Assembly (NCBI GenBank): GCA_033964015.1
Contig: CM066925.1
Span: 10,710,204 to 10,774,203, forward strand
Direction of reading: 5' to 3'
From: Scolanthus callimorphus
Taxonomy: Eukaryota > Cnidaria > Anthozoa > Actiniaria > Edwardsiidae
Length of the DNA: 64,000 nucleotides
In this document: positions 6,335 through 59,681 of the stretch, piece after piece
Layout: each line of letters opens with the position of its first letter
Numbering within the stretch: position 1 is the stretch's first letter
Notes under the pieces: model-generated
The model's database searches: none
Seen by the model: only the letters and a program-made list of their open reading frames with translations
Told to the model about the DNA's origin: nothing
Translations under genes and position numbers: made by a program

Positions 6335-9300
6335 CTAATCTCCTTGCAATGACGCCTTTACCTTCTCTCTTGAGATGTTCCAGCCTCCCTTCATCACAAT
6401 GTTGTAAACTTCGGTGACAAGCCATGGGAATTGTCTAAAGAACACGTAATCTTTGAACAAGGCGTCTTCAAACCACGCGGGACGCGGTTTTCCTCTGTCA
6501 TGGCTCGAATGCGCATAGGTGTTGCGAATAAATCGTAGTAACTCTACACATGACTTTGTATCGTACGTGCGATAGGGACCGGATGTCATCTCGCGGAAGA
6601 TAGCAGGGACTGGTACATCCCAATCTCCATGAAAATGTTTCACGAAACTTGTCTCCAAATCATTCTCGACCTGTGTTCTTACACCTGATGGCCTTTTCGA
6701 TCGAGGGGTTTCTATCTCTGGCTGATCTCCGACGGCTTGGATGAACTGCTGCTTCTTGTTATTCGTCCAGAAAAATGGATGAGTCAAAGCATCTGCCGCA
6801 GAAATGCGATCATCTTTATTTTTCGCGATCAGTCGTTCTACAAGATCAGACGCCTCGGGAGGCAAGATCTTACTGATAGAAGGGTTATAATTATAGATGT
6901 TAGCTTCCGTTTCGTTTTGAACTTTCAGACTTTGGTCGTTGCAATCACTAGAAGGCGGTGCGAATGGGTGTTTCTTTGAAGAGAGTATGTAATGAAGAAT
7001 AAGACCACAAGAAAACATGTCGGAATTCTTGCTGTGTGTGTCCTGCATGCCCTTTGAGGAAGTCTGGATCATCAGTTCCGGAGCCATCCATAATCGCGTG
7101 CCAGCATTTGTGTGCATGACAGAATCAGAGACTTCTGACAATTTGTCGCACGTGCTGCTTAAACCAAAGTCTGCTATCTTCAAACACAACGGATCGAGCT
7201 TGTAAAGTATGTTACCGGGTTTTAGGTCTCGATGTAGAATCTCTTTACTGTGTAGAAACTGTATTCCGAGAAACAAATCTTTGCAAAGCTTAACGCTATA
7301 GCTCGAATCAGGCTCGCTGTCGAGATATGCACGAAGATCTCCTTCCATTAGCTCCAGGACGATGTAGTGACAATACAGGTCTTTTGTATAATCTACGTAT
7401 CCAACAATTTGTTCACAATTTCCGATTGTGATAAGGTTTTCGATTTCCCTGGTGTCTACTTTCCTAACGAGATGCTCTTTAAGAAGACGTTTGATGGCAA
7501 CCTCCCTTCCATCCTTACTATTGATGCCTGCATGGACACTACTAAATAGACTGGAAGCTATAAAGCTCTCGTGAAAATAAAATTCGTCAACTTGCTTTGA
7601 CTTCTGGCGTCTTGCTACCTGTTTGAGTTTATCGTTGAAGCGAACTGATTGTGTTTTCCAAGGAATAAGCAGTGGGATTTCTTCGATGTCAAATTTTTGG
7701 AGCAATATTTCCAGTAAGTCGGACCCGTCTGAAGCTAAATCAAGTGGTCTTACACCATTCGAGTCACGAATGTTGACATCAGCGCCATACTGCAAGAGAC
7801 GACACACAATAGCACAGTGTACATTATCTTGACCTTGTCCTAAGTCCTTTGCATTCTTACAGCACAGATGCAAAGGGGTTTCGCCTCCTTCTCCCTTTTG
7901 GTTGACAGAAGCCCTTGATTTCCTCAACAAAAGCTCTACAAGATTTTCCTTCCAGTTGGTTTTCGGATTTGGATCTCCACACACATCAAGCAGGGCAGAG
8001 CTTGCTTTGCTGTCATCGAACTCTTCAGAACTAGAGGCTGCTACCAATAGAGCGTTCGCATGGTCGAACCAGTCTTCCGATATTAAAGTTGAGAAAACAG
8101 ACGGATGTCTATCTTTACACCAAACATCAAACTTATAATCCAAAACCTCTTTCCAAAATTGTTCTGTTGTAAGTTTCATTGACGACACATCACGATAGAG
8201 GTAATGTCGTGATGACGAGTACAGTTTTTCTAAACGTGCAAGACATGATAGCAAAGGGGTTTTGTTCTGATTTGTAAGTGCATTTGGGTCCGCACCTGCA
8301 TCCAAAAGGAGTCTCATGGCGCTCCAGGTTCTGCACAAATGAAGTGGGGCCTCGCGCTCCAAATTCACATTGTTCACTTGTGCCCCTTCTCAACAAGATG
8401 GCGAAAAAAGCCAAAAATAAATACCCGAAAATCACTAATATTCATCTTGGATTTCCATTCCAGAGAAGCTAAAAAGTGCAATGGAGTATTTGAGTCACCA
8501 TCTATGGCGTTTGCTGACAACTGACGAGCACTCGGATGAGTGGAGAGCAGCGTAAGCATCGCTTGTACATCGCTCGCTTCATATCTTCCGCACGAAAACG
8601 CCTCAATAAGGAGATGATAGACGCCCTTGCCCGAGAATGTAGCTTCATTGACCCGAGCACCACGGTCGAGAAGGAACTTGCAAAATTGAGAATTACAACG
8701 AGATGATTTACTGTTATTGAAGAAGTACAACAGGGGCGTTTCCCCGTTCTGATTCTTTACCCAAAACGACGCCCCACAGTCGACCATCATCTGACAAACG
8801 CATTTCGCTTCCTCCAAGGACGCCATGTCATTCGAGGCAACAGTAATCGCGTAAAAAAAGGGCGTGTTCCCCAATTCATCTGTTGCATTCGGATTTGCAC
8901 CCAAATCTAGAAGCAAGCGGCAAATATTATGCATCACAAAAGACTGCGATCCTACCACTCTAAGCAACTCGTTAAAACACTTCATTATATTGCCGTGTTT
9001 TACAGCTTGTAGGTGAGGTTCCATGGCTCTCAATGCATGGTTAATTCGGAATTTTAACAGACGCTCATCTTCCCGCAAGTTATCGCTAAAATATTTGAGA
9101 AATCTAATAAACACTGCGTCAATCGTAGCCTTGACAATGTTTTCAGACCTTTCTTTCATTTCTTTAAAAATGATAGATTCAAACTTTTGAATGTGTCATT
9201 TAACTTGGTGTCTTCGTTATTCTCAGGGTAACAGATATCAAGGGTGTTCACAATTGCATGCTGTAAGAGGCTCATTGAAAAACGGTCCGAAACGTCCATT

Positions 9301-12300
9301 TGCGCACCGTAATTAAGAAGAACACGCACTAGACTGTGGTTACTCTCGAACGCGTAATATAAAGGTGTCCTCCCTTGAAAATCTCTTGCGTTTACATCTG
9401 CACCACCCTCAAGAAGACAAATAGCCACCCTTGGATGTATTGCGAGGAAAAGAGCTGTATTTCCCTCGCTATATGTAATATTTACATCCGCTCCTTTGGC
9501 AATTAAGTAGCGTACGGCGGGTTCGTTATCGATGAATCTGGGTAGTACTGTTACGCCAATATTGTTTCTTGCGTTCAAATCTGCCTCTGCTTCTACAAGT
9601 AGACGAAGGGTGTTTACGGGAGACGAAAGAACGGCGTGGAAAAGAGGTGTTTCTCCAAGGCTATCACGGGCGTTCAGGTCTGCTCGTGCCTCTATTAAAC
9701 TACGCGTGATTTGTTCGTTCCATAAGGAGTAAAACAATGGAGTTCTCCCATGAACATCGACAATATTTACTTTAGCATTATGCTCTAGAAGAAGTTTGGT
9801 AATCTCTAGGTCGTTTCTCTTGACCGCGCAAAATAAAGGCGATGCCCCGTTTCTGTTATCAAGTTCGATATCAGCTCCACCATTTAAAAGAACCTTTGAG
9901 ATTTCAGCATCTCCTTTCTCACAAGCATGCATCAAAAGTGTCATGCCATCTAATGTTTCATTCACATTAGCTCCAGCATCGACAAGGAGTGCCATAATGG
10001 AAACGCGTTTCAAATTAAACGCGGACATCAAAGGCGTTATTCCACATTTATCACGCATATTCGCATTAGCTTTAGCATCGACAAGTAATCGTACAATCGG
10101 CAAATGACCGAATTTACAAGCAAAATGTAATGGGGTCATCCTATGATCGTCACAAGCATTCACATCTGCTCCGGCACCGAGAAGCAACCGTACAATGTCA
10201 ACATGTCCAATTTCACAGCCATGCAACAAAGGCGTCATTCCATGACAATCGCATGCATTCACATCTGCTCGAGCTTTGATAAGAAGGTGTACAATTCTCA
10301 CTTGTCCATTTATACACGCATATATCAAAGGTTCAACACTCGTGTTCACATTTGCTCCCTTGTTGACAAGCAACCGTACACTGTCTACCTCTCCCCATTC
10401 AGATGCATAACTCAAAGGAGTCAGTCCATTAGCATCTTTTGCATTCACATTTGCTCCAGCGTGAATAAGCAACCGCACAATATCCAAATTTCTTGTTTTA
10501 GATGCATAAATCAATGGCGTCATTCCATCGGCGTCACGGGCATTTAAATCTGCCCCTGCATCAACAAGCAGTCGTACAACAGCCAGATATCCCTTTCGAA
10601 ATGCAAACAACAATGGCGTCATTCCATCACCATCACAAGCATTCACATCTGCACCAGCATCGAGAAGTATTCGTATAATGTCGAGATGTCCCCTTTTAGC
10701 TGCTTGAATCAATGGCGTCATTCCATCACCATCACATGCATTCACATCTGCACCAGCATCGAGAAGTTGCTCTATAATGCCTTTATTTTCCGGTTTTAAT
10801 GCTTGAATTAAGGGCGTCATTCCGCAACTGTCACGTGCATTCACATTTGCTCCAGCTTCGACAAGCAGTCGTGCAATGTCCAAGCGTTCAAGTTTAAATG
10901 CATAGAAAAGTGGTGTAATTCGGTGACTGTTACAAGCATTCACATCTGATCTGGCACCGAGAAGCAACCGTACGATGTCAACATTTCCTACTTCACATGC
11001 ATAAAACAAAGGCGTCATTCCATGACAATCGCATGTATTCACATCTGCTCGAGCGTTGATAAGAAGCTGTACAATTTCCACTTTTCCGATTTTACACGCA
11101 TGAATCAATGGGGTTCTTTTATTACCAACACTCGTATTCACATTTGCTCCCTTGTTAACAAGCAACCGTACACTGTCTACCTGCCCCCATTTATATGCAT
11201 AACTCAAAGGAGTCAGTCCATTAGCATCTTGTGCATTCACATTTGCTCCAGCGTGAACAAGCAACCGCACAATATCCAAATGTCTTGTTTTAGATGCATA
11301 GATCAATGGCGTCATTCCGTCACCATCGCAAACATTCACATTTGCGCCAGCATCGACAAGCAGTCGTACAACAGCCAGATATCCCTTCCGAAATGCAAAC
11401 AACACTGGCGTTATTCCATCACCATCACAAGCATTCACATCTGCCTCAGCATCGACAAGTATTCGTACAATGTCGAGATGTCCCCTTTAGCCGCTTGAAT
11501 CAATGGCGTCATTCCATCACCATCACAAGTATTCACATCTGCCTCAGCATCGACAAGTATTCGTACAATGTCGAGATGTCCCCTTTTAGCCGCTTGAATC
11601 AATGGCGTCATTCCATCACCATCACATGCATTCACATCTGCCTCAGCATCGAGAAGTATTCGTATAATGACGAAATGTCCCCTTTTAGCTGCTTGAATCA
11701 ATGGCGTCATTCCATCACCATCGCGAGCATTCACATCTGCCCCTGCACCGACAAATAGTCGCACAATGTCGGGATATCCCAATTCAATTGCTTGAATCAA
11801 TGGCGTCATCCCATCACCATCACATGAATTCACATCTGCCTCATTATCGACAAGTATTCGTACAATGTCTAAGTGCCCAAGTTTCAATGTAGAAATTAAG
11901 GGTGTCATCCTGTCATTCACTGACCTGCCATTGACATCGGCGCCAGCTTCAACAATTAATTGCACAATGTCCACATTTTGCACATGACATGCCCTTAACA
12001 AAACTGTCCTGTCATCAGCATCCCGTGCATTTACATTGGCTCCAGCTTCAATAAGCAATCGCAAAGTGTCTAAGTCGTTTTCGGCAAAAGCCTGACGCAA
12101 AGTTCTATTTATATCAGCTCCAGCATCGACAAGCAACCGCACAATATGCGTGCTTTGGATTTCACATGCGTGGCACAAAGGGGTAGCTTCGTAAGGGTCA
12201 CTAACGTTCACATTGGCGCCAGCCTGAATGAGCAATGACACAATATGTGGATTTCCATATTCACACGCATACACCAAGGGTGTCTTTCTATCCTCATCAA

Positions 12301-13549
12301 AAGTATTCACATTAGCCTCAGCTTTAATAAGCATCTCTACAATACCAACATAACCACTTAGACTCGCATAAATCAAGGGCGTTGTTCCAAAATTATTACT
12401 TCCATCGACATTGGCTTTAGCATTGAGGAGCATCTCCATAACCGCACAATTTTCGTGTTCGCAAGCACAAAGCAAAGGAGTAGTTCCCAGTTCCTCCATA
12501 GCATTTACATCAGCTCCAGCTTTCACAAGCAACGCTATAATGTCAAGATTGCCTTTTGCACACGCATAAATCAAGGGAGTTTTTCCATTTTTATCACTTG
12601 TATTAGCATTAGCTCCAGCGTTGATAAGCGCGTGTACAAGATCAACATCGCTTGTTTCACATGCATAAACTAAAGGCGTTTTTTCATTTTTGTCATCGCT
12701 ATTATTGAGTTTATCGCCAATTGTCTTTACTAAACGTTCGGCGATGCGTTTCATATCTTCAATAATATCCGCTTTAGATTCCAAAGACTCGTAATCTGAA
12801 AAATCATGGATCCTGTCTACATACTGAACCAGTAACCTTTTATTGATAAGTGCGCCACGACTTGATAATAAAGAGAACACTTTATCGTTTGCGGTATAAA
12901 CTAATGGTGTTCTCATGAAGGCATCTTCGATATCTGCAGGAGTTCCAGACGACAAGAAGTGTTCTACACACTTAGCATCGCCAAGAGCACAAGCTAAGTG
13001 GAGTAATGAACACTGTAAAAGAGGTGATTTGGCATGTCCTGGAAGTTTTCTTTTGATAACTTCACGATAGAAATGCGCACATCTCCTCGAAGAATAATGC
13101 GGAGGCGATATTTTTGACGTACTTTCGGGTCGCATTTTATAATCCCCAAAAGCACTTACAACTAAAATCAATGCCGACTTTTCGCCGGAAATGTTGTTGA
13201 GTTCGTTTGAAAGCAGTAACTGTATCTGTATTTCGAAGGAACACGCAGTCATATCGAAGGTAATCGGAAATAATTCTCCTTCACTCGTATATGGATCACT
13301 TCCAACGCCTTCAAACTTTGCTTTGTTTTGTTTTGCGCCAATCCTAGAGTCATTGGGCTGAAACACAACCTTTAGTGCGCCATATATGTTCTCTTTCATG
13401 CATTTCATTAAATCCTTTATCTTTCCCCTCTCGTTTCTTAGTATAACTAATGGATTTAGCGTGAAAATCGCCTGTTGTCGCTGCCGCTCCTCTTGTGAAC
13501 GGTCTCCTGGCACTTCATACTCGATCGGCGTTACATTCCTTCTGTTCAT
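6335..13549 (-). CDS. RNase L-like ankyrin repeat / IRE1-type kinase / KEN ribonuclease protein (three one-base frameshifts)
   Basis: One intronless gene of about 2,400 aa read as four open segments (13549-11435, 11438-9156, 9159-8374, 8377-6335). Order: a unique N-terminal 170 aa, about 45 ankyrin repeats (TPLI..A..G..DIVR.LL.AGADVN), a protein kinase (about 7594-6790) and a C-terminal KEN domain (about 6745-6390). The glycine loop is degenerate, but the VAIK lysine, HRDLKPGN, DFG and MAPE are intact. In KEN, Tyr, Arg-Asn and His stand at the spacing Y-x12-RN-x3-H of yeast IRE1 (Y1043, R1056, N1057, H1061). The family cleaves RNA on kinase-driven dimerisation. There is no signal peptide or membrane segment, unlike IRE1, so it is probably cytosolic like RNase L. 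Frameshifts fall in homopolymers at 11486-11488, 9166-9170 and 8383-8386. I do not know its ligand. It could be a pseudogene if the shifts are real. Confidence 0.93.
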
Positions 13550-33400: not shown

Positions 33401-36400
33401 TAAATTTGTGAATGGAAGGTACTTCATCTAAAAGGCCTAGTTTATACGTCGTATTTCGGACGAATTTAATTCAGACGAATTTAATTATCGCAATTAAATT
33501 CGTCTGAAATGCGACGTATAAAACGAGCCTAAAAAGGTTGAAAATTAAATTCGTCCAAGACGCTGTATACGTCGACCCCGGACATATACAACGTCTGTCT
33601 TTGTTTGATTTTATTCGTCGTATAAAACGAACCTCCATTTTATATGTCGCACAGACAAATTTAATTGATCAATTAAATTCGTCTAATTAAATGCGATGTA
33701 TAAAGCACACATCCAAATTGTCATTGTGCAATTCCAGAAAAAGTCCATCAAATTTTTGACTGGACTTTATTAAAAATAAAAAGTCTATGTTTAAATTTCT
33801 GGTTGACAAAGACTAGCTGATTACGTAGGACCCTGAAATGACAGGGGAAATTAAACCAGATAAATGATCAAATTTGGCAAGGTTAAAAATATTAAAATAA
33901 CTTATAACATTCATCCATTATTCATAGGATGCTCATCCAATCTCTGCACTGGATTCGGATCAGGTGACACTACTTGTAACCCCCGATACCACATGGCTAG
34001 GTGTCTGATGCAGAATACTAATTAGTATTCTGTATCTGATACAGAATACTAATTAGACCAGTTACTATTCTGTATAGGACACCTTCCAGTGCAGCCCCCA
34101 GTCTTTGAACAGTTGGATATTTGTTTCAAATAACACATATCCCCTACTGTCCAAAGGCTGAAGGGAAACACTCTAGTCCAAGAAGTCCAAGTATGGTCTT
34201 CTCTCGTAGAGCAGTACCTAAAAAAACTTCACGTGAGAGACTATATGTTGTTTTAGTCCAGCTAGTTCCATGTGGGAAAGAAATCATGCTTTCTGCGTAT
34301 ATGCTTGCTACAAAACGATTGGCGTTTTTGTGCATCCGAAAATTCTTTCATTTTCAATGCACTTGTTTCAAATATCCCCTCAGACTAAAAGCTGAAGGGG
34401 ACCACTCTAATGAAGTCCAAGCATGGTCTTCCCTCGTAGAGCAGTACCTAAAAAAGCTTCCCTGAGAGACTATATGTTGTTTTAGTCCGGCTAGTTCCAT
34501 GTGGGACAGGAATCATGCCTTCTGCGCATGCTTGCTACAAAACGATTGGCGTTTTTTGTAAACACCCGAAAATTCTTTAATTTTCAATGAACATTCAATG
34601 TAATATAAGTACAAAAGTAAAATATCAAAAAGTAAGAATATTCGTGTCTATGTTGTATCTGCCGATATAACATAGCCACTCATATTGTAAATAGTACTTA
34701 CCAAATCAATAGGAGGGTCCAAAGGCTCAAAGGTGAGATAATCTGATACAAACTGAGCACACCCATCATAATCATAGAGCTCCTTGTATTGTAGTAGGGT
34801 GGGTCTGATGTATGTGCAAATAAATTTCTGCAAATGAATCAAGGAATGGTCAAAACCTACATGTACCCTGAGATATGATGGATGCCAACCCTTGAACACA
34901 AGAATTCAGGAGATCTTAGGCAAAGAATAAAGGCTATAATATGAGAAATACAGAAAAATATAACTTAAATGTGGGCAATTTTACCAGGAAGCATGGTAAA
35001 AATCTTGGGACACCTGGTAAAACCCTGGGGTACTTCACTGCTTTTTGGGTAGGAGTGCGCTGCTGAGGTCTCCAAAACCAGACCCTATCAGAGAGACCAA
35101 AAATCCTTGTTTTTTTATACCCTACCACAGACCTAAAGTTAGTCACCAGGGTCGACCAGATCACTAAGTAACTTCGCCCCAGTTGTGTAACACCAGATTC
35201 TCTGGATGCCAGATTCTCTTACCCATCACGTCTTGCATGATGGGTAACCCTCGTTGCACTGGCCCCCCATTTGTAGATTTAGATAGATGTAGATATCTGG
35301 ACTCTGATGCCCAGGGTAGAGAATACCCCATCAGCATACTTGAAGGCCTCAGCCAACATGAAAGTACTCACCTCAGTACCACATTCATTGATAGGATTCA
35401 ACAACAATGGTTTTCTGTCTCTGTACAAATGAACAAACTGACGTCTGAAATTCTCGGCAAATGAAAGTACCAGCTTTTCTTTGGCATTGTTTGTTTTATA
35501 TGTGTCTGGGAGTATATCTGGGTTCACCTTTGCTGAGCTGAAATGCACAAAATCATAAACCTTGGCATTTTGATATACATTTATACATACAATGTAAAGA
35601 GAAGCAAAGGAAAGTAGGTATCGACAAGAAATATGTCTTATTCGACTTCTCGTGCTTAGCAGAGATACTTGAGAAATGTAAAGCTTGTTGTGTAATCTTA
35701 ACTTATTTTCTTTTGAAGGAATGACCATGGTTTTCTGTCTCTGTACAAATGAACAAACTGAAATTCTCGGCAAATGAAAGTACCAGCTTTTCTTTGGCAT
35801 TGTTTGTTTTATATGTGTCTGGGAGTATATCTGGTTCACCTTTGCTGAGCTGAAATGCACAAAATCATAAACCTTGGCATTTTGATATACATTTATACAT
35901 ACAATGTAAAAAGAAACAAAGGAAAGTAGGTATCGACAAGAAATATGTCTTATTCGACTTCTCGTGCTTAGCAGAGATACTTGAGAAATGTAAAGCTTGT
36001 TGTGTAATCTTAACTTATTTTCTTTTGAAGGAATGACCATGGTTTTCTGTCTCTGTACAAATGAACAAACTGAAATTCTCGGCAAATGAAAGTACCAGCT
36101 TTTCTTTGGCATTGTTTGTTTTATATGTGTCTGGGAGTATATCTGGGTTCACCTTTGCTGAGCTGAAATGCACAAAATCATAAACCTTGGCATATACATA
36201 CAATGTAAAAAGAAACAAAGGAAAGTAGGTATCGACAAGAAATATGTCTTATTCGACTTCTCGTGCTTAGCAGAGATACTTGAGAAATGTAAAGCTTGTT
36301 GTGTAATCTTAACTTATTTTCTTTTGAAGGAATGACCATTCTCCTCTAGACTAGAGAAATTGGCGCCAATTTTCGTGTAGTACTTACGGCATATTTTGCG

Positions 36401-39800: not shown

Positions 39801-42800
39801 AATACTTTGTGGTTGAAAACAGGAATTTGGAAGGCCACTTTTGAACCAGCTCTTATGCACACTGGGCTGTGTAAATTACATAAACATCGCATTCTGCACA
39901 GCATTTTACACAGAAGAATTTAAGTTCGTCAGAGATTTCTCATGATCTTGTAGACTATTAATCAGTATTTTCCTTGCCACAGCTCCTTCCCAGTGTATTG
40001 CAAGGTACTCATCAGCAGCATTCCATGCAGCCATGTTCAACCCTGTGGACCCTGTACTTATCGCTACTGCAAACGCCAAGAAAGGAGTGCAGTTATGGGA
40101 CTCTCGAGCACCCAAAAAGTATGATCATGTAAATGACCTGAAATAGCAAATGCGCATGGGAAGCATGGCATGACATAGCATATGAGTCGCTTGCCACTCC
40201 GTTCGATTCCCATTCACGGCACCGAGGATTCATGGTCAGTACAGTTGGGATATTTCTCTACTGTGCCGAACCTTGTTTTCGACATGGGTTGAAATGATTC
40301 GTCATTTTGCATCTTAGGGATCAGACATGGGTACATCTATTAACCACATTTGAACATTAATATGGATATTTGCGCGTCATTCTGTTCTGTTGTACATTTG
40401 GCTAGCATACAGCCCACAGTAGTTTTTCATGTTCTTTTCCACCACAATCATGGTTGTTTTTTGATATTGGCATCACCAGGTTGTAAAACGAACGAAAATC
40501 ATTTATGAATGTAAGTCCGTTCATTAAATGCGCATTCTGTCGTTTTTTCTCACAGACTTCTTCAACAATACAGCAATCTCAATCCCCAGACATGTGCTAT
40601 GGGGGTCAAGTGGAACAGCCGTGGCACCATGCTTACCGCCCTGAGGCGCCGACTACCTCCAGTGTTGTACCGCATTGACCGTAGCGCGAGCCTGGTGGAG
40701 TTTGACCATCAGGGCTACAATAACGTCTGTACCATGAAGAGCCACTGTTTTGGGGGAGATGATGATCAGGTATTTTATAACTACAATCCAAGGACGATTC
40801 CAGATATAAACGCACGCTCTGTTTTCTTTAGAAATGCTTTTGGAGTGAATGTAACACAACTACAGGATGCAACGCGCGCATGCAAATCAGTTGCAGTGAA
40901 GCGCATTCAAAATAGCTGGAATCGTCCATTGAAATCAAGTCCGAAACGTCGACTAGGCTGTGGTATTTGTGCCGTTTTTGTATCGTTTTTAATTGGGAGC
41001 TTTTCTTTCAACCTATCGTTTTTCGTGAATCCACAGAGAACCCAGACCCAGTGATTTCCAAGCGCTTTACGATTCGCTTGATTGTCTATGAATCGCAATG
41101 CGGGTGTAAGATTTTACAAGTTTCCCTTACAATCCGAAATTAGTTCCGGTTCGCAAGAGCAAAAAAAGCTACAAACTGTAAAAAAATCGTTTTCATAGCA
41201 GTACAGCCAAGTCAAAACACACACACACTTTCAAGAGCGCTCCGTTGGGTTTTAAGAACCCAACATTTGACCTTATCGGGCTTCATAGCCCACAGTTGGA
41301 AGAACGCAATGGCATCACGAAGGGCATGTGTTCGATTCCCGTTGAAGCCTGAAATCTGATTTTCTGGTCTTCTAATGGACGGCGAACCAGTTAGAGTGCT
41401 TTCTTAGCTATCATTTACTTCCCATCCCAACAATCCTCCATAAGCAGAGTCCTCTTTTCAACAAAAGAAGATTTGACTTCTTTTTCTGTAACCAAAATTA
41501 ATGTTAAACCAAAATATTAATGAACTTCCCTGAATTACAAGTAAACGGATATATTTAATGACTCTTTTCTGTCATGTTTTCAGTACATAATCTCTGGATC
41601 AGACGACTTCAACGTGTATGTTTGGCGGATACCGGAAGTATCCGACAAGCCCGAGGGCGTGGTGACCGTAGATGAGGCCTTCCTTGTCCTGTCCGGTCAC
41701 AGGTCCATTGTAAACCAAGTGCGGTTTAACCCAGCAACCCATATGGTCATCTCTGCTGGCGTGGAAAAGGTTATCAAGGTATGAAGTGCATTTTTAGTAC
41801 TTATTTTGCAAGTGGGACTCGCTGTTATGATTTGCGGGGGAGGTGTTCAGTGGATTAAATTCAACAAACTAAAGCCAACACTTCAGTTTTATTTGGCAAT
41901 TTGCTGGTTTAAAATATTGCCCTAAAAGAATCCACTTCGTTGATTTCCAAAAGCGAGTGCTGCGATGTAGCACAATTCACATCCATGCCAACTGGAAATA
42001 CTGAAAATCGTGGCGTAAACAATACCATTTGTTTCTGTTTTTCTGCTAAGGTTTGGAGCCCATGGCAACTCTACGATGAACAAGAACAAGACAGTCGCTC
42101 GCAAGATACAAGTCAGCGGCGTGAGATGTACAGTCATGATGACTATGTGGACCTGGTGTTAAGTAGTGGAAGACCGCTGACACATGAATATGAGGAGGGT
42201 TCGGTTGAGGTAAAGGGGCAATCCATCTGGAAAAATACTCAAGCTTCGCTCACGTACAGAGTCATTCTCGTACCCAGTGCTCCCCGGCTTGCCACCTCGC
42301 GGGGGCCTTCGCTGATTGGCTGATTTTGAACGTTAGTGCATTGGCGCAGAAATTTCAACGGCTCTGTATCAAAATATCGCGCGTGCGTCAATGGCTGTCA
42401 CCAGAGCCTCTCCCGCGAGTTGTTGTAAGAAACCGTATGTCGGTTGGAGGTGATTTGTGACGCGAACGGCTCTTGTCTATAGCAATTTAGCTTCACCGAG
42501 AAAATTAACTGATACTGAAACTGAACGGGTTGGTTAACTGCGAAGTGTTTTAAGACACATTATGCATCTTAAGTTCGAGCATGGTTAGTAGAGTCCCCTC
42601 TACTAACTATGGTTCGAGTTGAAATAAAGTGTTTGTATTATTTAGGGAAAACTGGGTGCCAGAACGATAAAAGTTCGTGATCTCAGACTCTTGAGTGTGC
42701 GACCATAATATTACAGTCCTGTAACTGCCTGTCATTTATTTATTCAACAGGAGGATCCTCGGATGCTCGCATTCTTCGACTCGCTAATACAGCACGAAGA

Positions 42801-44127
42801 GCGAGGCTGGGACTCCGACACCGACGACAGTTTCTCAGAAGAGGAATTTTACTTGAACTTCACGCGAGGTGATTCCGATAGCAGCTCGAGTAACAACGAC
42901 GAGTCCCGAGGCGTGAGCATTGAGACCGTTCGGAACATCATCGCGGGATACTCGACAGGGGCAAGGCAGGCACCAGATACTATGGAAGGAGGGGAGCGGA
43001 TGGACGAGGAAACTAGGGCGGTGCTGAGGCGGATGGGGCAACTACGAAGGGCAATGTTCCTACGTGCAGAGGCGGAAGCGGCAGTGGATGGGGATGAGGA
43101 GGGCGAGGACTCAGAAGCGCGGGAGGTCCTTCGTAGGATGCGCCACCTACGCCGTGCTATGTTTTTAAGGGGCTTCCTACGGGCAGCAGAGGGAGCATCC
43201 AACAACGGCAACGAGGCAGCAGCCCCCGCCCCTTCCGAGAGCAACCTTCAGTACCTAAGAGACATTAATAGAGTGCTACTACAAGGCGAAGTAGGGTCTT
43301 CTTCCGATAGTGGATCAGACACATCTACTGAGTCTGAGCCTCGACCAAGACTAGCTTCACCCGAACCAGACCAAGACGCAAGCCCAGTCCGATTCCGCAA
43401 CCGTGTCTTCCACAGTACTCGCCGCTATCGGAGCCAAAGGAGCAGAAGTTCTAGTAGTGATAGAAGGGGAAGCCGCTCTGATACAAGCACTGCCTCCTCA
43501 GCAGCGGGCTCTGACAATGGGCGGCATCACAGTGGCAGCTCCTCAAGCGCGAGTGAAAGCGACACAGGAGAAGGCAGTCGTCGTCGGCACAAGCGACAAA
43601 GAAAGAGGGTTCAAAACCATGAGAGGAGTGCCTCTGAAGAGCCAGTAAATGAGGTAGAGATTGGGGAGTGCTCAGGCAGTTTTCATTCTTCCGTCGACCA
43701 CGCCCCTGCTGCTTCAATGGGCGATGGTATTGACATTGACAATGATAACAGTGCTGCGCATAAATGTGAAGACAATGGTGATCTTGTGGAATGCAGGTTA
43801 AGAACACTTTCCTCTTCTTGTTTCGCGACTGGGGAAAATCAGCAACAAGGACATAACTCGTCACGAGAAAACGAGCTGCGACCTTGCTCTTCCGTCAAAG
43901 ATTCAAGCGTGACAAGTGTTGATTGTTCTTCTGTGAGGCAGAGCAACGGGTTGCGTGAATGTTTTATTGTGAATAACCTATCAGATGTAACGATGATTGA
44001 TCACGTCACACATAGCGCCAAAGCGACGATGGATGCACAATCCACAGAAGGACCTCCGGTTAATGGGCGTGTGTCATCGAACAATTCTTGTTCAGCACAA
44101 AATGGTGCCACAAAAGCAGATGACTAA
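36837..44127 (+). CDS. DCAF5: DDB1- and CUL4-associated factor 5, WD40 substrate receptor
   Basis: Nine in-phase exons (876 aa; human 942): 36837-37065, 38202-38348, 38574-38610, 39502-39638, 39983-40118, 40556-40769, 41584-41778, 42051-42209, 42751-44127. WD40 blades are recognisable: DLRGHYGCVNAIEFSNHGG, GGDDRRVLVWD, LHDDPVYSLCVHPDNNLF, ALRRRLPPVLY, YIISGSDDFNVYVWRIP, GHRSIVNQVRFNPATHMVIS. They are followed by the diagnostic EDPRMLAFFDSLIQ. The last exon encodes a long acidic, Ser- and Arg-rich disordered tail (SSSSDRRGSRSDTSTASS). DCAF5 recruits substrates to the CUL4-DDB1 ubiquitin ligase, mainly in the nucleus. The gene is divergent from DRC7. Confidence 0.95.
38710..39020. mobile_element. 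Adjoining foldbacks in DCAF5 intron 3
   Basis: ACAATTAGACCTC (38710) pairs with GAGGTCTAATTGT (38801). Directly after, GTATCACCCAACTAGTTGGA (38818) pairs with TCCACTAGTTGGGTGATAC (39001-39019). The latter are TIR-like ends of a MITE of about 200 bp containing CCAATCAGAATGCAGCATT, a phrase also present at 56030. Confidence 0.75.
41278..41351 (+). mobile_element. tRNA-derived SINE head
   Basis: GGGCTTCA...TGAAGCCT forms an acceptor-like stem. TAGCCCACAGTTGG resembles an A box with a 2-bp insertion, and GTTCGATTCCC is a consensus B box. The anticodon arm is not canonical, so this is a tRNA-like SINE module in DCAF5 intron 6, not a working tRNA. Confidence 0.6.
42263..42421. mobile_element. CATTCTCG MITE, copy 2 of 3
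   Basis: Begins CATTCTCGTACCCAGTGCTC and runs through TGATTGGCTGATTTTGAACG and CAACGGCTCTGTATCA to ...GAGCCTCTCCCGCGAG. The right inverted end is missing, so this copy is truncated. It lies in DCAF5 intron 8, 54 bp after the exon 8 donor. Confidence 0.65.
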
Positions 44128-46790: not shown

Positions 46791-49700
46791 ATGGATAGCC
46801 ATTCTCATATGGATCCCTTGGGGAGCTCTAATCGCGGATATTACCAGCAATCTGTAGTTAATATGCCGAGTTCTACGTATTCTTATAATTCGACTAGCGT
46901 TGCAAGCGATGCGTCTGACGGGGGAAGATTTTTGCGTTATGTGCCCAAGAAACAGACGACTGACGGGGAAATCGTACTGGATATTGGGGATACGGCTAGT
47001 GTTGAATCAAGAGGTTAGTGTTTATTAGTCGTCCCATTGCTTGTTTTACTGAATGGACATTTGTTTGGGAGTCGAAATAAGAAAATGGAGCTGATAATAG
47101 GCTGTTTAGACGGACGGTACAAACTGCAGGTTTGCAGGTTGCAGGTTGCAGGTTTGCAGGTTGCAGGTTTGCAGGTTTGCAGGTTGAAGGTTTGCAGATG
47201 TGAGTGATCTTATGACACGTGGGAAAATTATTAGCAAGTACTCCTTACGGACATTGACGTCATTGAACACGTGACCGTGGGAAAATTATGAATATCTCCG
47301 CAGCATTTATATGAACGGCAATCAAACTTGGAAATTAAGGTGTTTAACGCTAGTCCAGCAAGAACTCCTTGATTACGGACAGTGACGTCATTGACACGTG
47401 ACCGGGGGAAAATTATGAATATCTCCGCAGCATTTATATGAACGGCAATCAAACTTGGAAATTAAGGTGTTTAACGCTAGTCCAGCAAGTACTCCTTGAT
47501 TACGGACAGTTACGTCATTGAACACGTGACCGTGGGAAAATTGTGAATATCTAATCAAGGAGTACTTGCTGGACTAGCGTTAAACACCTTAATTTCCAAG
47601 TTTGATTGCCGTTCATATAAATGCTGCGGAGATATTCATAATTTTCCCACGGTCACGTGTTCAATGACGTCACTGTCCGTAATCAAGGAGTACTTGCTGG
47701 ACTAGCGTTAAACACCTTAATTTCCAAGTTTGATTGCTGTTCATATAAATGCTGCGAAGATATTCATAATTTTCCCACGGTCACGTGTTCAGTGACGTCA
47801 ATGTCCGTAAGGAGTACTTGCTGGACGTTAATAATTTTCCCACGTGTCATAAGATCACTCACATCTGCAAACCTGCAACCTGCAAACCTGCAACCTGCAA
47901 CCTGCAAACTTGCAACCTGCAAACCTGCAACCTGCAGTTTGTACCGTCCGCTGTTTAGACACCTGTTTGACAAACATAGACCTACATGTAAAGAAGGTTT
48001 ATATTTTGATCCAAACAAATTGGTTCGGTAAAATGGTTTCCAATGTTATCTTGGTTCAGTCCTGATTGCGACCCATGCCTAGATTTTTTAATGCATTAAT
48101 TAATACATTTAATTAATTTAGTATAATAACTAATAAGAGTCTCTTTATTCCATTCACAGATCAAATTTTAAGACAGCGAGGATCACAAGAAGAAAGTGGC
48201 AGAATGCTTTCAGTAAGGAAATTAAGCTAGAATTTTTCATAATTTCTTTGTTCTTGAAACTGGATTTATGTAAGGAGTTATACCTGCTAAGATGTTGTTA
48301 CATATTTTTATACACTTACTGTTTTATTTTAGAGTGTCATCAAGCCATTCCAGAAAAGGTCTTACACAATAATGAACACAGTAACAAGAGAACTCAAGAC
48401 TGTCCTTGCTGAAAAAAGGGTATGGGCTGTTTTGTCACAAAAAGAAAATTATATTCTTTGTTTATAAAAAAAATGTTTATGTACATTATTATGATCAAAC
48501 AGCACTTCACTGTGCAGTTCTAGGCCATTCTTCAGAGCCGTGGATCCTTAAATTCCATATTTCTGTTGGCAATATAACAATGGCATAATGTGAATAAAAT
48601 ATTTATTTTGTTCACATTTTGCAGCATTATAGTCAAGGCATGTCAGATTGAATGTGTTGTATTAGAAGTGTTCATTTACCAGTACATACTATTTTCTTTT
48701 ATTTCTTTATACAGGGTTGGAAGATCTTCTGGCTACTTTTAATAAATTTGGTTTTAACATTTGTGTTATTTGTATATAGTGGATCAACAAATAGCTTAGG
48801 TAAGAGAACAAAGCAACAGACAGAATATATAAATGTCATGTCATGTTGAATTATTACATGAGCTTTGTTGTGTGATGTTTGTAACAGGTTTTATTTTACA
48901 CCTAAGTGAAAAAAGTTCAGTGTACTAAAAAATATAGGGGGTATTTACTGTGTGACTACGTCAACTGGGCCATTCCGTAAAAAAATTATCATTCAGAGAT
49001 TCAAACCATTTTAAGGAATTTTGATAGCTGAGCTACATTTGACGATGAGTAATTAAGTGTTTTGAAGTGATTTCTGCTCATAATTTTCACAAGTTTTAGA
49101 GAAAAGTGAATATTTTGATGTCTGAGATCTCAAGAAAGTGAGATCCTTTGTTCTGTACTCACTTTCTGATTGGCTAACTTCTTTCAAAATGGCCCGGTTG
49201 ACGTAGTTTCACAGTAAGCCCATATTCGGTGCAATGAGCCCTGATCTTACATTGAGCAATCACTAAAAACAGCTAATTTTTACTTCCACCAAGGAGGTTT
49301 TAAGTAATGTTTACAACCTCCTTGATCCCACCTTTGAGTAAAATATTTAGATGTAGCCAACACGTTTTGTTTTTTCTTTCCTCTCTTCTAGCACTGATGG
49401 CATTTAGTTACTTAACAATATTTGACATGCTAAGGTTGGTTGTTTCTTACTAACAGTTTGCCATTTTTAGTTTTTTCTTCTTGTTACTTCGTCTTGAAAA
49501 GAGTATAAGACCTGCTTCACTATCCTACTGTTCTGCTCATTTGATGTCTAGATTGTCAGCATTCAAGAGTTTTGATCTTTTTCTAAAACCTACAAACTAA
49601 GACAACTTGATGAATGTTACTGATGCTGGGACAAATTAATGATCATACTGTTTACTCCATTCCTGCTTCTGTGTTTCTCAACAGTTTATTGACTTGTCTA

Positions 49701-52700
49701 CTTTCATTATGGGTCTCTCTTCAAAAACCATCAACCATCTTCTCATTTGGGTAGGTTATTACGCACAGCCAAAATGTCCAGCCAGGTGGATGACCAGCTC
49801 TTGTTTTTAGCCCTGCATAAAGGAAGATCATTTGTTTTTAGAATGTTGCCAAATAATTTGTTGTAATTTCAGTTCAATTTATTACTAAACCTAAAAGGTG
49901 CTGAGCTGTGCAGTGGCAATTAGCAGTCATTTTTGTTACTAACGTCCTCAATACATTTAGGAATTTTGTCACATGTCCACTTCAAGAGGGGGCTCCTTCC
50001 ACTTCAAGAGGGGGCTCCTGGGCCCCTCCTCTATCTGTATAGAGGATAGAATATTAGTAAATGCCTGGTCGACATCTCAATACACTTTCCATTTTCAGGT
50101 ACGAAAGATATGAAGTATTAGCTGTGTTCTCCTCTACAGCTCTAACCATGTTTGGAGCTTTATTTATTTTCAAAGAGAGGTAGGTTTCATTTCTGTGATT
50201 CTTGTATTATAATCTTATCCAGAACACACCAAGGGGTTTTACTCCCACCCTCCCACACTTAAAATCCACCTCTTTGTCTGTCTGTCAGGGACGGCGGAAC
50301 AGTTTTCAAAGTGGGAGGGGGGGGGATTATTAGTAAGATTGTATGGCAAGGTGGGGGGGGGGGGGGGGAGGGCTGAGTTTAGTGAAAATGTATGAAACCC
50401 TCTGCCGTCCCTGTCTGTCTATATGTATGTATGTCTGTCTGTCTGTCATATAAGATGCCTATGTGGCTAGATGACATACCGGTAACTGGGCTACATGTAC
50501 AGTACAATTTTTTAAAACCACTGCTTGCACTGTTCTTCCTTTTCAGCATTGAAAGGGTGCTAATGCCAGTGGAGGTTTTAACGTAAGCTTGCATGCAAAT
50601 AATCAAATTGTCCTCACTGATTTTTTTTAACTAGACAAGGATTGAAACAACTAATACATACATATACATTCATGGTTCATTTCAGGGAGAATATGTTCAT
50701 CCTCTCTGTCGTGGGGCTGTTTCTTCATTTAATAGTCACTTTTACAGCTGGAAACAAACCTTTAAACCATGTATCTAAAGGTTAGCAAACAAACACTTTC
50801 TTTTTTACTCATGGAAAATCTCAGCCATTTCCCATTATTGGAGTTGCAATTTTGCCATGTCCTGCAAGCAGGCAAAAGGTCATGGGTAAAGTAATTTTAA
50901 ATTAAAAGTAAACTGCACCAGAAGTCAATTCCCATGTTGGTACTTCCATGTGTCCTTACTACAGTATAATTTCAAAATGAATACAAATATAACCTAGTCC
51001 TTGTTTAACTATTTCATCTAATAGGTGCAGCTTCAAACTGGCTTCAGGATGCTGTAACTGATCTTGGACACAGGTAAAGGGTTAAAAGTGCTAATAATTT
51101 TGACTGCACATGCAAGCACTTGTCGATTGTGTTCAGTACACACATGTTACTTGGTGATCCTAAGATTTTGTTACATGATAAGTGCTCAGGAAATTGTTTT
51201 TATATAAAATGCATACATTACATTACATTTCTTTTTAAAACTTGATATTAATTTTTTAATTTTGGATATATTTTAACTGTGATTAAATTAAGCAGTTCTA
51301 TATCTATATAGGCTAAGAGAATTCCTGACTTGCAGATAGACTGTACACATATCGTGTGGCACTGTTGCTCCGACGAAGGGCTAACGCTCGAAACGTCAGC
51401 AAAACACCATTTTTCCACGGCGTTTAACATAAATCTCAACCTTTGGTTGTTGTTGTTAATGTTCACGTCTCCGCCGACGCAGACAACCTAGTTTTCCCGT
51501 AAAACTAGTCATACCATTGTTGAAATAGTTGTTAATGTATGTCATTTGCATTTTGCAATAATGAGTTTTTTCTTTTCAGTATTTGTGGAATCACACCTTT
51601 CCTTGGAAAGGCACTGATTCAGAAGTTTAATCCCATTGCATTGTTGGGCATTGCTGGGTGCCTGTCTGTTCTGTTAACTGATGCTATGATTGATTACAAG
51701 TAAGTTTTGAATTTCATGTACATTTTATAGCCTTTAGGAAATAGGGAGGGGAGATGATAAATGCCTCATTGTATGAATTGGATGGCAGAGATTTGTTGCA
51801 TTACCCTCCTATTGAAGGAACATTTCCAGTTTCTCCTAAATGGGGGGGGGGGGGGGGGTGGTGGTGGTGACAATACACCCTAGCTAGGTAATAATAACCT
51901 TTATTGACGTTTACAACGCTATAGCGTTCAATGGTCACTATACTAAAATTGTAGTAATATAAATACAAATCTTTTAAGTTAAAAAAAAAATACTATAATA
52001 TATATTATATATAAATTATTAAATGCGTCTTAGAGCGTTTGAGTCAGCTTATTGGAGCGTATTTTAAAACACCGAGAAATATATTTCGCCAAAGGGTTTT
52101 CTAAACCTTCTGAGGTCAGAAGCCATTTGAACTTTTCTAGACATGGCAGAGCCGCAAAGAATGGGATAAGTCCCACTGCCACGTCGAAAAGTTTCTTTCG
52201 TTCAACATCGTATAGCTTGCAGTTAATGAGGAAGTGCATCTCATCTTCCACTTCCCCATCACTACAAGCCATACAATGCCTTTCTTCTCTCGGAGTTGGC
52301 TTTGGTTTCTCGTACCGCCCCGTTTCGACCCTTAGTTTATGAGCGCTGACTCGAAATTTTGTTAAGGCTGTCCTTCTTTCTCTGCTCTTGACCACAGACA
52401 GATACCTTTCCTTTTTATATGTATCTTTTATAATGTCATAAGTGCAGAGTTTACCGCTATTTTGTTTAGAATGTTGCCATGCCTGGATGTAAGAGTCACG
52501 CAGTGTGTCTTTTATACTGCTAAGTAAAAAACGTGTAAGTGTTATCTCTTGCATCCAGACATAGCTTCTACCGGCGTGATTCAGTAATGATCGCACACTT
52601 GCTGACCAGCTTTTCTGGCCCTTGTCCGCCAGGGCTTGTGACACCCTGTATGCTTGACTTATAAGTCTCGAGGGTTCGGAGTGCACAAGGTGTGACCAAT

Positions 52701-55700
52701 ACTTAAGAACAATGCCTTTAATATCGATCTCTAGGGGGAATCTCCCTAATTCTGATAAAACAGCTATATTACTAGCTTTACTATGTACCCCCAGAATCCA
52801 TTTGCACATTTTTATATGTACAGCCTCAATCGCTTTTAAGGATTCTGTCCCCCATACTGCTGATCCGTACAGCAAGATGGGTTTTATAAGGGAGTCAAAT
52901 AGTTTAGCCAGAACGTCCGGGTCTGCATTTATATTATCAGAGAAGATACTCTTCTTGAGCGTATACAGAGCTTTTTTCGCCTTCTCTGCTAAATTCGTTT
53001 TGGTGTTACCAAATGTTCCCGTGGTATTGAAAGTTATTCCGAGGTAGGTGAAGGCATTTGTTGATTTGATATTTTGACCCTCCAACCTAAAATCACTATC
53101 GGAATCTTTAAGGCGACCACCTTTCCGAAAGACCATGGTTTTTGTCTTCGAAAGGTTGATTGTTAACTTCCATTTTGAACAGTATTCGCTCAAGGTATTA
53201 ATTGACTCTTGTAGTCCTACAGGATTACTAGACAGCATGACTAAGTCGTCAGCATATAACAAGGAATGCACTTTGTTTTCTTCGAGGGTGACACCACCAT
53301 TTTTGCTCGATTCCGAGAGAACCTCTTCGACGTCATTTATGTATAAATTGAATAGCAACGGGCTGAGGTTACTCCCCTGCATCACACCTGTATTACACTC
53401 GAAGAAATCAGAAAGGCCTTGTTTTGTTTTAACGCAAGCTTTTGTGGAGGAGTACATATTTCTTATGAGGCCAAGGAACCTTGGAGAAACTCCGGTTTTC
53501 ATGAGCTTCAACCATAACAAGTCCCTATTTATCGAATCAAACGCCTTTTTGAAATCCACAAAGCATGCGTAAACTTTTCTGCCTTCTTGCAAATATTTAT
53601 CTGTGATTGCCTTTAATATAAATATATTGTCAACAGTACTATATCCTTGTCTGAAGCCTGCTTGGTTGTCTACTAAAATCCCGTGTTCATCACAGCTATG
53701 CCCCTGAAAGGTCACCCATCTCTTTTGTGGATTATCTGCCAGGGAAAAGAGTTATTTTGCAATCTGTTCCATTTTTACAATTTTGTTAATTATTCCAGTA
53801 AATCATACATTGCTGACAGCTTGTGTGCGATGGTGATGACGTCAGTCATCTGGGCAACCATGCTGCCCCTCAGTATATATAGTGGACAAGTGTTATTACA
53901 GGCAAGTCAAATAATAATAATAACTACTTATTAACCTCATTTGCTCAGGCAGTAAGGAAAAATTCTAGCCTGAGGGATGAAATTTCTGCTTTACGGACCG
54001 AGCCTCTGGGCGAATAAAAAAACAAAGCTAGTAACTTAGGTACATGAGAAAGCCTACAATTTTATAAAAGCAAATACAAAGCAAGAACAACTACTATTGG
54101 ATGTCCCCTGTCTCCTCCTGGCATCCTGTTCTCATTTTCAGTAAAAGTTTTTTCCCAAGCAATATTATCAACCGCTTATTTTCTTGTGTTGCCTTTTAGA
54201 CTTGTCCTCCAGACGTGATGAGCCAAATTGATAAGTGTCTTAGAGAGGTAGGTGGGATACTTAACAATACAGTTTTGTTCAGTAACAGCTGATTTACACT
54301 CTGCAATTTGTCAGGCCAATTGTATTTTGAGCCACGTCTTCTTTGTTACGTGTGAAGGAAAATGGGGCCCAACCCAAAAAATGTGTTACATTGTGATCAC
54401 AGATTTGGGGTTGGGCCAACAACCAATCCATCAAGAAATTGCCCTTGGCTTGGGGCTAGATTGTGCACTTGTTTTCTGTAATGTTAAATGCAAATGTTTA
54501 ATTTCAAAGCCAAATGTTGCATTTTGTCCATATTAATTATTTAATTCATTGTCTAATTTTGTAGGCCTCTACTCTTGATGGTGTCCTGGAGTTTAGGAAT
54601 GAGCACTTTTGGACTGTATCGTTTGGAAGAATGGTGAGATACGTATAACCGGGATCCAGAACCTTAAATGATGCTCTGTTTAGTGACTCACCAAGTAAGG
54701 CTCTGGATCCAGCAAAAATGGATCTCTGTTCTTGGCAATATTGTCACTGAATCTTTTACAGTCAAACAGTCTGGCAAAAATATGTATATTATCATTCATC
54801 ACCCTGGTTATTAGACAGTCACAGTCCAGACCCCCCCCCCCCCCCTCCCTCTTTGGCTCAGTGTGAGCCCCATGCATGCCCATTATATGGAATTCCAGCA
54901 TGGTCAAACAAATTCCAGGGTGGTCAAACAAATTCCAGGGTGGTCAAACAAATTCCAGGGTGGTCAAACAAATTCCAGGGTGGTCAAACAAATTCCAGGG
55001 TGGTCAAACAAATTCCAGCATGGTCAAATAAATTCCAGGGTGGTCAAACAAATTCCAGGGTTGTCAAACAAATTCCAGGGTGGTCAAACAAATTCCAGCA
55101 TGGTCAAACAAATTCCAGGGTGGTCAAACAAATTCCAGGGTGGTCAAACAAATTCCAGGGTGTCCGTAAAGATATTCACTGGATTTCAGTGAAAGTGGGT
55201 AACTGAAACTGGGGCCCTCAACAGGGGTAAGTTTTTTGCAACAGCCCATTTGTTAGCATAGCTGCTTGTTTCTGTTGATAACAAAATGTTTGCTTTAATA
55301 GGCTGGATCACTTCATGTGAGGATAAGAAGGGATGCAAATGAGCAGGTAAAATATTTGTTTTTATATTCACCAGAAAAAGTCCATTACCTTACTGCGCAT
55401 GGCCATCGGGGTGCTCCCCTTCTCACTAAAACTTTGTCAATATGGACGCATTCTCGGACCCAGAGTTCCCCGGCTCGTCACCGCGGGGGAGGTTCTGGTG
55501 ACAGCCATCGACGCATGTGCGAGATTTGATACAGAGACGTTAAGAGAAACACTTTCTGCGCATGCCCCAACGTTCAAAATTAGCCAATCAGAGCCTCCCT
55601 CGTGAGCAGACAAGCTGGGGAGGTCTGGGTGCGAGAATGAAATGGACGGTTCGTATGGTAACACAATTACCAGCAAGGCACTTGCACAACTACCGACATG

Positions 55701-58906: not shown

Positions 58907-59681
58907 ATTAATTATACCATATCGTCGAAAACATACGTTACCTCTAGGACAGATAAATTAGTTATTTTCTCAGTTGAGGGAGAAAAACAGCTGAATCAAC
59001 CACAGTGAGGCAACTGTGCAAAGCAGGAGCACATCAACACTCTAACCCATAGTTAATAGTACTCTCTCTTCTATGTTAGATTAATCCGTTCAAATATGTA
59101 GTCTCTCTCTTCTATGTTTAGACTAAGTCCGTTCAAATAAGTCTTGTAGAAGCGGATATTTTCATCTGATGTAGCAAAACCAAAATATAAGATACGTATA
59201 TTTTTTGTTCGTTCCCATATTGTCCTATTTTTTAGTAGCTTCACTCGACAGAAGGTACGTAAGTCTTTTGTTTTGCAGCTAATTTTAAGCACAAACACTT
59301 TTGTTGTGACGTGGCACCACAAGGCCACAATTACGAAGTCGCTCCATGTATCTCTTCTTTTAGCAAATTTCTAGAGTTTCTACTCCTTCGGAGTTAGTTC
59401 TAATGTAATGTCTATAGAAATTTGGTGTCTTTTCATATAAAAAAATAAAGTTGGTGTTCGAAGTGAGTTATCCAAGGGTGTCCAGGTTTCTTTTTATGTA
59501 AATGAGTGAGCCCTTTCGTTTACACAGACCGTGACAGATAGATCCGCCTGTCGAAACATGAGAAACTTACAAATTCGTTCTATCATGAACAATGTATTTG
59601 AATTTCGGAGTTCAAGTGCAATCGACAACACGAAAAAATAAATAAATAAATAAACGGAACAATTTCGAAATCTTTTTCGTT
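58907..59681. other. Intergenic, no recognisable gene
   Basis: Presumed promoter of the LicD-type gene, then AT-rich sequence. A minus-strand frame at 59071-59328 shows no domain and contains a local duplication (CTCTCTCTTCTATGTT twice), so I do not call it. Confidence 0.5.

What the first reader, a model, noticed from the sequence alone, without database searches (positions are those of the whole stretch)
6335..13549. RNase L-like ankyrin-kinase-KEN protein in an invertebrate genome, with about 45 ankyrin repeats
The domain order ankyrin repeats, kinase, KEN ribonuclease is that of vertebrate RNase L, the 2-5A-activated antiviral nuclease, but the ankyrin array is about five times longer and the gene is intronless. 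The catalytic pattern Y-x12-RN-x3-H is preserved exactly. This could be an ancient or convergent sensor-nuclease. Nine ankyrins bind 2-5A in RNase L; what this long array binds is unknown.
Basis: partly seen in the sequence, partly recalled or inferred. Interest (0 to 1): 0.92.

Follow-up and report, generated by a model that had tools for sequence, protein, structure and literature searches.

The report
Coral-type ankyrin-kinase-KEN ribonuclease gene (frameshifted copy)
This is one copy, broken by three single-base frameshifts, of a large and apparently little-described family of sea-anemone and coral proteins that couple a long ankyrin-repeat sensor to an IRE1/RNase L-type kinase and RNA-cutting domain, so such sensor-nucleases are probably not a vertebrate-only invention.

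Summary
The domains are real. On the minus strand, 13549-6335 encodes an N-terminal region, 34-39 detectable ankyrin repeats, a protein kinase (Pfam E 1e-43) and a KEN ribonuclease (PF06479, 43.1 bits, cut-off 23.3) with the catalytic Y-R-N-H set. The reading frame is not open: three one-base frameshifts split it into four ORFs. Relatives run collinearly across two of the breaks; the third falls inside a repeat. It is a miscalled or recently damaged copy, not a fusion artefact. It is not unique: two searches list 217 family rows (208 with KEN), up to 2470 aa; the 29 rows that name an organism are all Anthozoa. The kinase-KEN is no recent IRE1 copy and no RNase L orthologue: kinase residues are canonical, Y-x12-RN spacing is IRE1's (RNase L x11), and the RNase L 2-5A signature is in none of the 106 rows with at least four repeats, nor in the window. 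A tryptophan linker before the kinase is shared with RNase L and was absent from the one fungal IRE1 examined; this favours one old ankyrin-kinase-KEN lineage over convergence. Likely mechanism, inferred: an unknown ligand assembles the arrays, kinase-KEN dimerises, and KEN cuts RNA as an innate-immune effector.

The parts
6335..13549 (-). whole gene: ATG at 13549, stop at 6335-6337, 2405 residues when the three frames are read on
12965..13549 (-). N-terminal region (residues 1-195); no Pfam match below E 0.29, no match in the 240 relatives then held
9303..12694 (-). main ankyrin array (residues 286-1416), 33-residue period, partly in near-identical copies (99/198-bp tandem repeat at 10365-11869)
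7733..9302 (-). degenerate ankyrin region (residues 1417-1940), collinear with relatives
7616..7660 (-). juxta-kinase linker WKTQSVRFNDKLKQV, shared with RNase L
6770..7588 (-). protein kinase; K (VAIK), Glu, HRD and DFG intact, glycine loop without glycines
6389..6751 (-). KEN ribonuclease (PF06479)
   Evidence: fold
6509..6565 (-). KEN catalytic motif Y-x12-RN-x3-H
11475..11497 (-). frameshift 1, inside a repeat whose neighbour copies read on
9170..9200 (-). frameshift 2 (exact base uncertain)
8375..8395 (-). frameshift 3

Best explanation
A member of an anthozoan family of apparently soluble ankyrin-kinase-KEN sensor-nucleases. Shown here: the domains, the catalytic residues, the family and its size. 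Inferred: the long ankyrin solenoid binds a ligand (infection-linked nucleotide, RNA or protein), which brings monomers together; the kinase domain, with ATP and probably autophosphorylation as in IRE1, forms a back-to-back dimer; the two KEN domains then complete an RNase site that cuts cellular or viral RNA, as an innate-immune or cell-death response. The family's kinase-KEN and that of RNase L probably descend from one old ankyrin-kinase-KEN ancestor separate from IRE1. This particular copy carries three frameshifts. They look like homopolymer miscalls, but a recent pseudogene is not excluded.
Against: No biochemical or expression data for this gene. No relative with the same N-terminus among the 240 rows then held. 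The window copy has lost the glycine-loop glycines, so its kinase may bind ATP poorly. Three frameshifts. In rows P0054-P0120, mostly the octocoral-type branch, the linker motif is rare (3 of 67). Human, rodent and goose RNase L were not among the top rows of the linker-profile search. Whether the Nematostella genes called RNase L in PMC8476169 belong to this family could not be checked. Family size alone does not prove an immune role. Solubility was not tested with a membrane predictor.
Confidence: 0.6

Rival explanations
1. This copy is a dead gene: a duplicate decaying by frameshifts, with function carried by other copies.
For: Three frameshifts; alanine at a glycine-loop position where 194 of 217 relatives have glycine and 10 alanine; dN/dS between two array blocks 0.48, only moderate constraint.
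Against: None of the breaks is a plain stop; KEN and kinase catalytic residues intact; all three breaks are near runs of four A or G, as long-read consensus errors are, though 110 such runs exist in the gene.
Confidence: 0.3
2. It is a true RNase L orthologue activated by 2-5A made by the cnidarian OAS.
For: Same domain order; shared linker; OAS genes reported in corals and Nematostella (PMC6307210, passages).
Against: 2-5A signature W60/K89/F126/E131 (residues recalled, letters checked in human) in register in 5 of 6 RNase L-type rows examined (P0241-P0245; P0247 lacks the exact spacing), but in 0 of 217 family rows, of which 106 have at least four detectable repeats, and not in the window; IRE1-type Y-x12 spacing; canonical K, E, HRD, DFG in the kinase.
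Confidence: 0.08
3. A duplicated or retroposed IRE1 kinase-KEN fused to ankyrins, acting in the unfolded-protein response.
For: IRE1 is the best PDB match by sequence and fold; same catalytic spacing; no intron seen; human IRE1 plus all non-IRE1 rows as one clade is not rejected (p 0.45); no cnidarian IRE1 was in the tree.
Against: Family plus human IRE1 as one clade rejected (AU p 2.4e-5); the same for RNase L plus human IRE1 (4.3e-6). No IRE1-type luminal domain in the Pfam scans.
Confidence: 0.07
4. An ankyrin-scaffolded signalling kinase in which KEN serves mainly as a dimerisation or RNA-binding part.
For: Kinase residues conserved in 213 of 216; some relatives have no KEN in their Pfam list (e.g. 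P0050-P0053).
Against: KEN catalytic quartet conserved in 203 of 207 rows that cover it, hard to explain without RNase activity.
Confidence: 0.1

Closest known systems
Vertebrate RNase L (2-5A-dependent ribonuclease)
   Same: Order ankyrin-kinase-KEN; tryptophan linker W-x3-S-x6-L-x2-L before the kinase (8 of 8 RNase L-type rows; the window has it); RN-x3-H active site
   Different: About four times the repeats; no 2-5A signature; canonical kinase residues where human RNase L reads HQD and DFD (alignment); Y-x12 instead of Y-x11
IRE1 (ERN1)
   Different: Ankyrins where IRE1 has a luminal and membrane part (recalled); separate clade (IRE1 100/100)
Anthozoan 'IRE1-like' / uncharacterised ankyrin-kinase-KEN proteins (e.g. 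Actinia LOC116308594, Dendronephthya LOC114530986)
   Same: Same architecture; many collinear over the last 850-940 residues and P0122 over 1253; 32-50% identity
   Different: Repeat number and N-terminus vary; the window has the most repeats at all three thresholds (39, 37, 34 against at most 38, 35, 33 in the 217 rows), while P0172 and P0182 are longer proteins

Membership tests
KEN / Ribonuc_2-5A domain (PF06479, HEPN superfamily) | Significant profile match | tested here: met
   43.1 bits, cut-off 23.3
KEN / Ribonuc_2-5A domain (PF06479, HEPN superfamily) | Rx4-6H active site plus catalytic Tyr | tested here: met
RNase L | N-terminal ankyrin repeats, kinase, KEN in order | tested here: met
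RNase L | 2-5A contact residues in ankyrins 2-4 (list recalled) | tested here: not met
   absent in the window; 0 of 217 family rows in register, 106 of them with four or more repeats
RNase L | Degenerate (pseudo) kinase | tested here: not met
   K, E, HRD, DFG intact in the window; its glycine loop, however, is degenerate
RNase L | Y-x11-RN spacing in KEN | tested here: not met
   x12 in the window and in 202 of 203 family rows with RN-x3-H; 13 of 216 rows had no such motif
RNase L | Falls within the vertebrate RNase L clade | tested here: not met
   own clade: 100/100, 99/93 kinase only, 97/98 KEN only
RNase L | Activation by 2-5A, RNA cleavage | not testable with these tools
   needs protein
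IRE1 | Kinase-KEN fold | tested here: met
IRE1 | Luminal sensor domain | tested here: not met
   no such match in Pfam scans
IRE1 | Transmembrane segment | not tested
   no predictor used
IRE1 | Falls within the IRE1 clade | tested here: not met
   the 3 IRE1 rows form one side, 100/100; family plus human IRE1 rejected; no cnidarian IRE1 included
Anthozoan ankyrin-kinase-KEN family | Clade with collinear ankyrin-linker-kinase-KEN | tested here: met
   sister to P0122, 97/96; collinear over residues 1153-2405

The most novel reading that the evidence does not exclude
Anthozoa keep a diversified repertoire of ankyrin-array-gated KEN ribonucleases, an immune sensor-nuclease family whose ankyrin-linker-kinase-KEN plan predates the split of cnidarians and bilaterians; vertebrate RNase L would be one specialised survivor that acquired 2-5A sensing and lost kinase activity, while the anthozoan arrays, duplicated repeat by repeat, read other ligands.
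Probability: 0.4. Interest if true: 0.82.

Novelty: new variant of a known kind. Interest (0 to 1): 0.62.

Why it matters
[quoted passage not shown] A family with the RNase L plan, kinase catalytic residues and an intact RNase site, in many copies in corals and anemones, offers candidates for a nuclease arm of cnidarian antiviral defence, and makes the origin of RNase L testable by experiment in Nematostella or Exaiptasia.

Tried and rejected
Assembly fusion of an ankyrin gene and an IRE1 copy: rejected, relatives are collinear over both parts. A second copy inside the window: none by tblastn with the window protein or the 240 rows then held. Conserved 2-5A pocket: an apparent signal in 24 of 217 relatives was out of register, a by-product of periodic repeats. 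Specific sisterhood to RNase L by tree alone: not claimed, since the three groups form an unrooted trichotomy; the kinase-only tree with 20 outside kinases puts RNase L nearer IRE1 with weak support (84/40), with one long outside kinase, P0221, inside that group. The KEN-only tree does not recover RNase L-type rows as one group (3 changes). A Xenia protein with five kinase-KEN modules groups with RNase L (95/90; 97/89 kinase only), but grouping it with the family or with IRE1 is not rejected (p 0.08). The reverse linker search (RNase L profile against the family) was weak: best hit at the linker in 36 of 79 eligible rows with a hit, about 3 expected, top real score 3.6 bits against 1.5 for decoys; the window scored -3.0. 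The looser linker pattern was written after seeing the Xenia modules, and the pattern after comparing human RNase L with the family. N-terminal region: no Pfam match below E 0.29, no match in relatives, and its structure could not be predicted. Own genome: the genome search did not complete. Organism below Anthozoa not determined. Not in print: I found no paper on this family in searches, which cover open-licence PMC papers only; of the papers they listed I opened passages of eight, and no supplement.

Full report
What is there. On the minus strand between 13549 and 6335 a protein of 2405 residues can be read, but only across three one-base frameshifts, near 11486, 9186 and 8383. The four ORFs are 710, 776, 273 and 684 aa stop to stop. 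The shifts are at or near runs of four A or G; the gene has 110 such runs. The three together restore the starting frame. Shift 1 lies inside a repeat whose neighbours give the unbroken wording. Shifts 2 and 3 are crossed by relatives: P0122 aligns with residues 1153-2405 in one piece at 38.7% identity; 123 HSPs cross shift 2 and 166 cross shift 3 (several HSPs per protein, some slipped by the repeats). So this is one gene, either miscalled or freshly damaged. No intron is seen in the coding stretch.

Domains. Pfam gives ankyrin families, Pkinase (9.7e-44) and Ribonuc_2-5A (5.5e-11, 43.1 bits against 23.3). A family-trained repeat HMM finds 39, 37 or 34 repeats at 0, 3 or 6 bits; the highest of 217 relatives are 38, 35 and 33, and RNase L-type rows give 7-9 in five of six (2-3 in P0247). 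The first HMM, made from the window itself, gave 39 hits. Part of the array consists of block duplicates (dS 0.28, dN 0.135, ratio 0.48, one pair of blocks; 99/198-bp tandem repeat). The first 195 residues match nothing found here.

Family. (query 684 aa, kinase-KEN scored) finds 1749 proteins, (whole-length query, same region) 359; 120 of each are listed. I treat P0001-P0217 as the family: 208 of 217 have KEN by HMM, 178 at least one detectable ankyrin repeat and 106 at least four (many rows are short pieces). The 97 rows among them are 1329-2470 aa. The 29 rows naming an organism (one cut short) are all Anthozoa. The last 850-940 residues, degenerate ankyrins included, are collinear in many. 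Several rows share one longest-contig length, suggesting clusters (inference from the tables). Two rows list a death-effector domain; rescanned they give E 1e-7 and 2.5e-8, scores 32.5 and 34.5, cut-off 35.9.

Relationships. RNase L-type rows here are human plus the seven hits; P0243 bears no organism, and P0246 (cod) and P0247 (Siganus) are not named RNase L by their source. In the kinase-KEN tree (43 rows, chosen by me out of the roughly 250 sequences held) IRE1 (yeast, chytrid, human) is one side at 100/100, this family with its octocoral branch another at 100/100, and RNase L with the fish proteins and a five-module Xenia protein a third at 95/90. Family plus human IRE1 and RNase L plus human IRE1 are rejected (p 2.4e-5, 4.3e-6); human IRE1 with all the rest is not (p 0.45). 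Hence no recent IRE1 retrocopy, but the root among the three is open, and the kinase-only tree leans weakly the other way (84/40). The KEN-only tree again keeps the family apart (97/98) but does not hold the RNase L-type rows together. Two discrete characters help. First, the catalytic Tyr to Arg-Asn spacing is 12 in IRE1 (3 of 3), in the window and in 202 of 203 family rows with the motif (13 of 216 have none), but 11 in the RNase L-type rows (8 of 8 offer it; the goose has a Tyr at both, the rodent also at 13) and in the Xenia protein (3 of 3 modules with the motif). Second, a linker W-x3-S-x6-L-x2-L/V stands right before the kinase in 8 of 8 RNase L-type rows and 127 of 212 family rows, but after only 9 of 2483 other tryptophans. 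The window has it; it is absent in the one fungal IRE1 looked at; it is common outside rows P0054-P0120 (124 of 145) and rare in those rows, mostly octocoral-type (3 of 67). A profile of the family linker hit the matching place in P0247, P0246, P0243 and P0245 (10.4, 10.3, 6.1, 4.4 bits) above the best of 540 shuffled controls (3.4), with P0244 at 2.3 below it and human, rodent and goose not among the top 25. The reverse search was weak. I read this as a shared ancestral plan, with moderate confidence.

Ligand. The RNase L 2-5A residues (recalled; letters checked in human) stand in register in P0241-P0245, not with exact spacing in P0247, and in 0 of 217 family rows, 106 of which have at least four repeats. 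So 2-5A in the RNase L manner is unlikely. What the array binds is unknown.

Mechanism and literature. By analogy with IRE1 and RNase L, ligand-driven assembly, back-to-back kinase dimers and KEN cleavage are the most likely course; none of it is shown here. PMC6307210 (passages) reports no RNase L in Nematostella, Acropora and Orbicella but OAS in all three; PMC8476169 (passage) names RNase L among homologues detected in the poly(I:C) response of Nematostella without detail; PMC3710099 (passages) describes KEN expansions in Oikopleura and monocots and ankyrin fusions in general. In the passages read, none describes this anthozoan family. Verdict: real, ordinary as a gene within its family, but the family is a notable variant of a known kind.

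Noticed in passing
P0123 (Xenia LOC124455575), residues 43-2265: Five kinase-KEN modules in a row without ankyrins in the Pfam list; three keep Y-x11-RN-x3-H, the RNase L spacing, and all five have a loose form of the RNase L linker. Could be a cnidarian relative of RNase L proper, or a gene-model fusion.
   Followed up: partly
P0246 (Gadus morhua): Two kinase-KEN modules, no ankyrin in the Pfam list, grouping with RNase L.
   Followed up: partly
52030-53751 (-): 573-aa ORF with a reverse transcriptase domain (RVT_1, 4.2e-32), probably a LINE-type element.
   Followed up: no
47125-47936: Mirror arrangement: TGCAGGTT repeats, a 127-bp tandem unit, then a 128-bp unit that looks like its inverse and inverted repeats; perhaps a non-autonomous mobile element.
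   Followed up: no
58010-58957 (-): ORF with a LicD match (27.8 bits, cut-off 22.6) behind a 51-bp tandem repeat coding a 17-residue unit.
   Followed up: no
40515-44127 (+): Two ORFs (179 and 472 aa) without Pfam hits that look to me (recalled) like exons of a DCAF5-type WD40 gene.
   Followed up: no
35407-36339: 312-bp unit three times in tandem, 96% alike.
   Followed up: no
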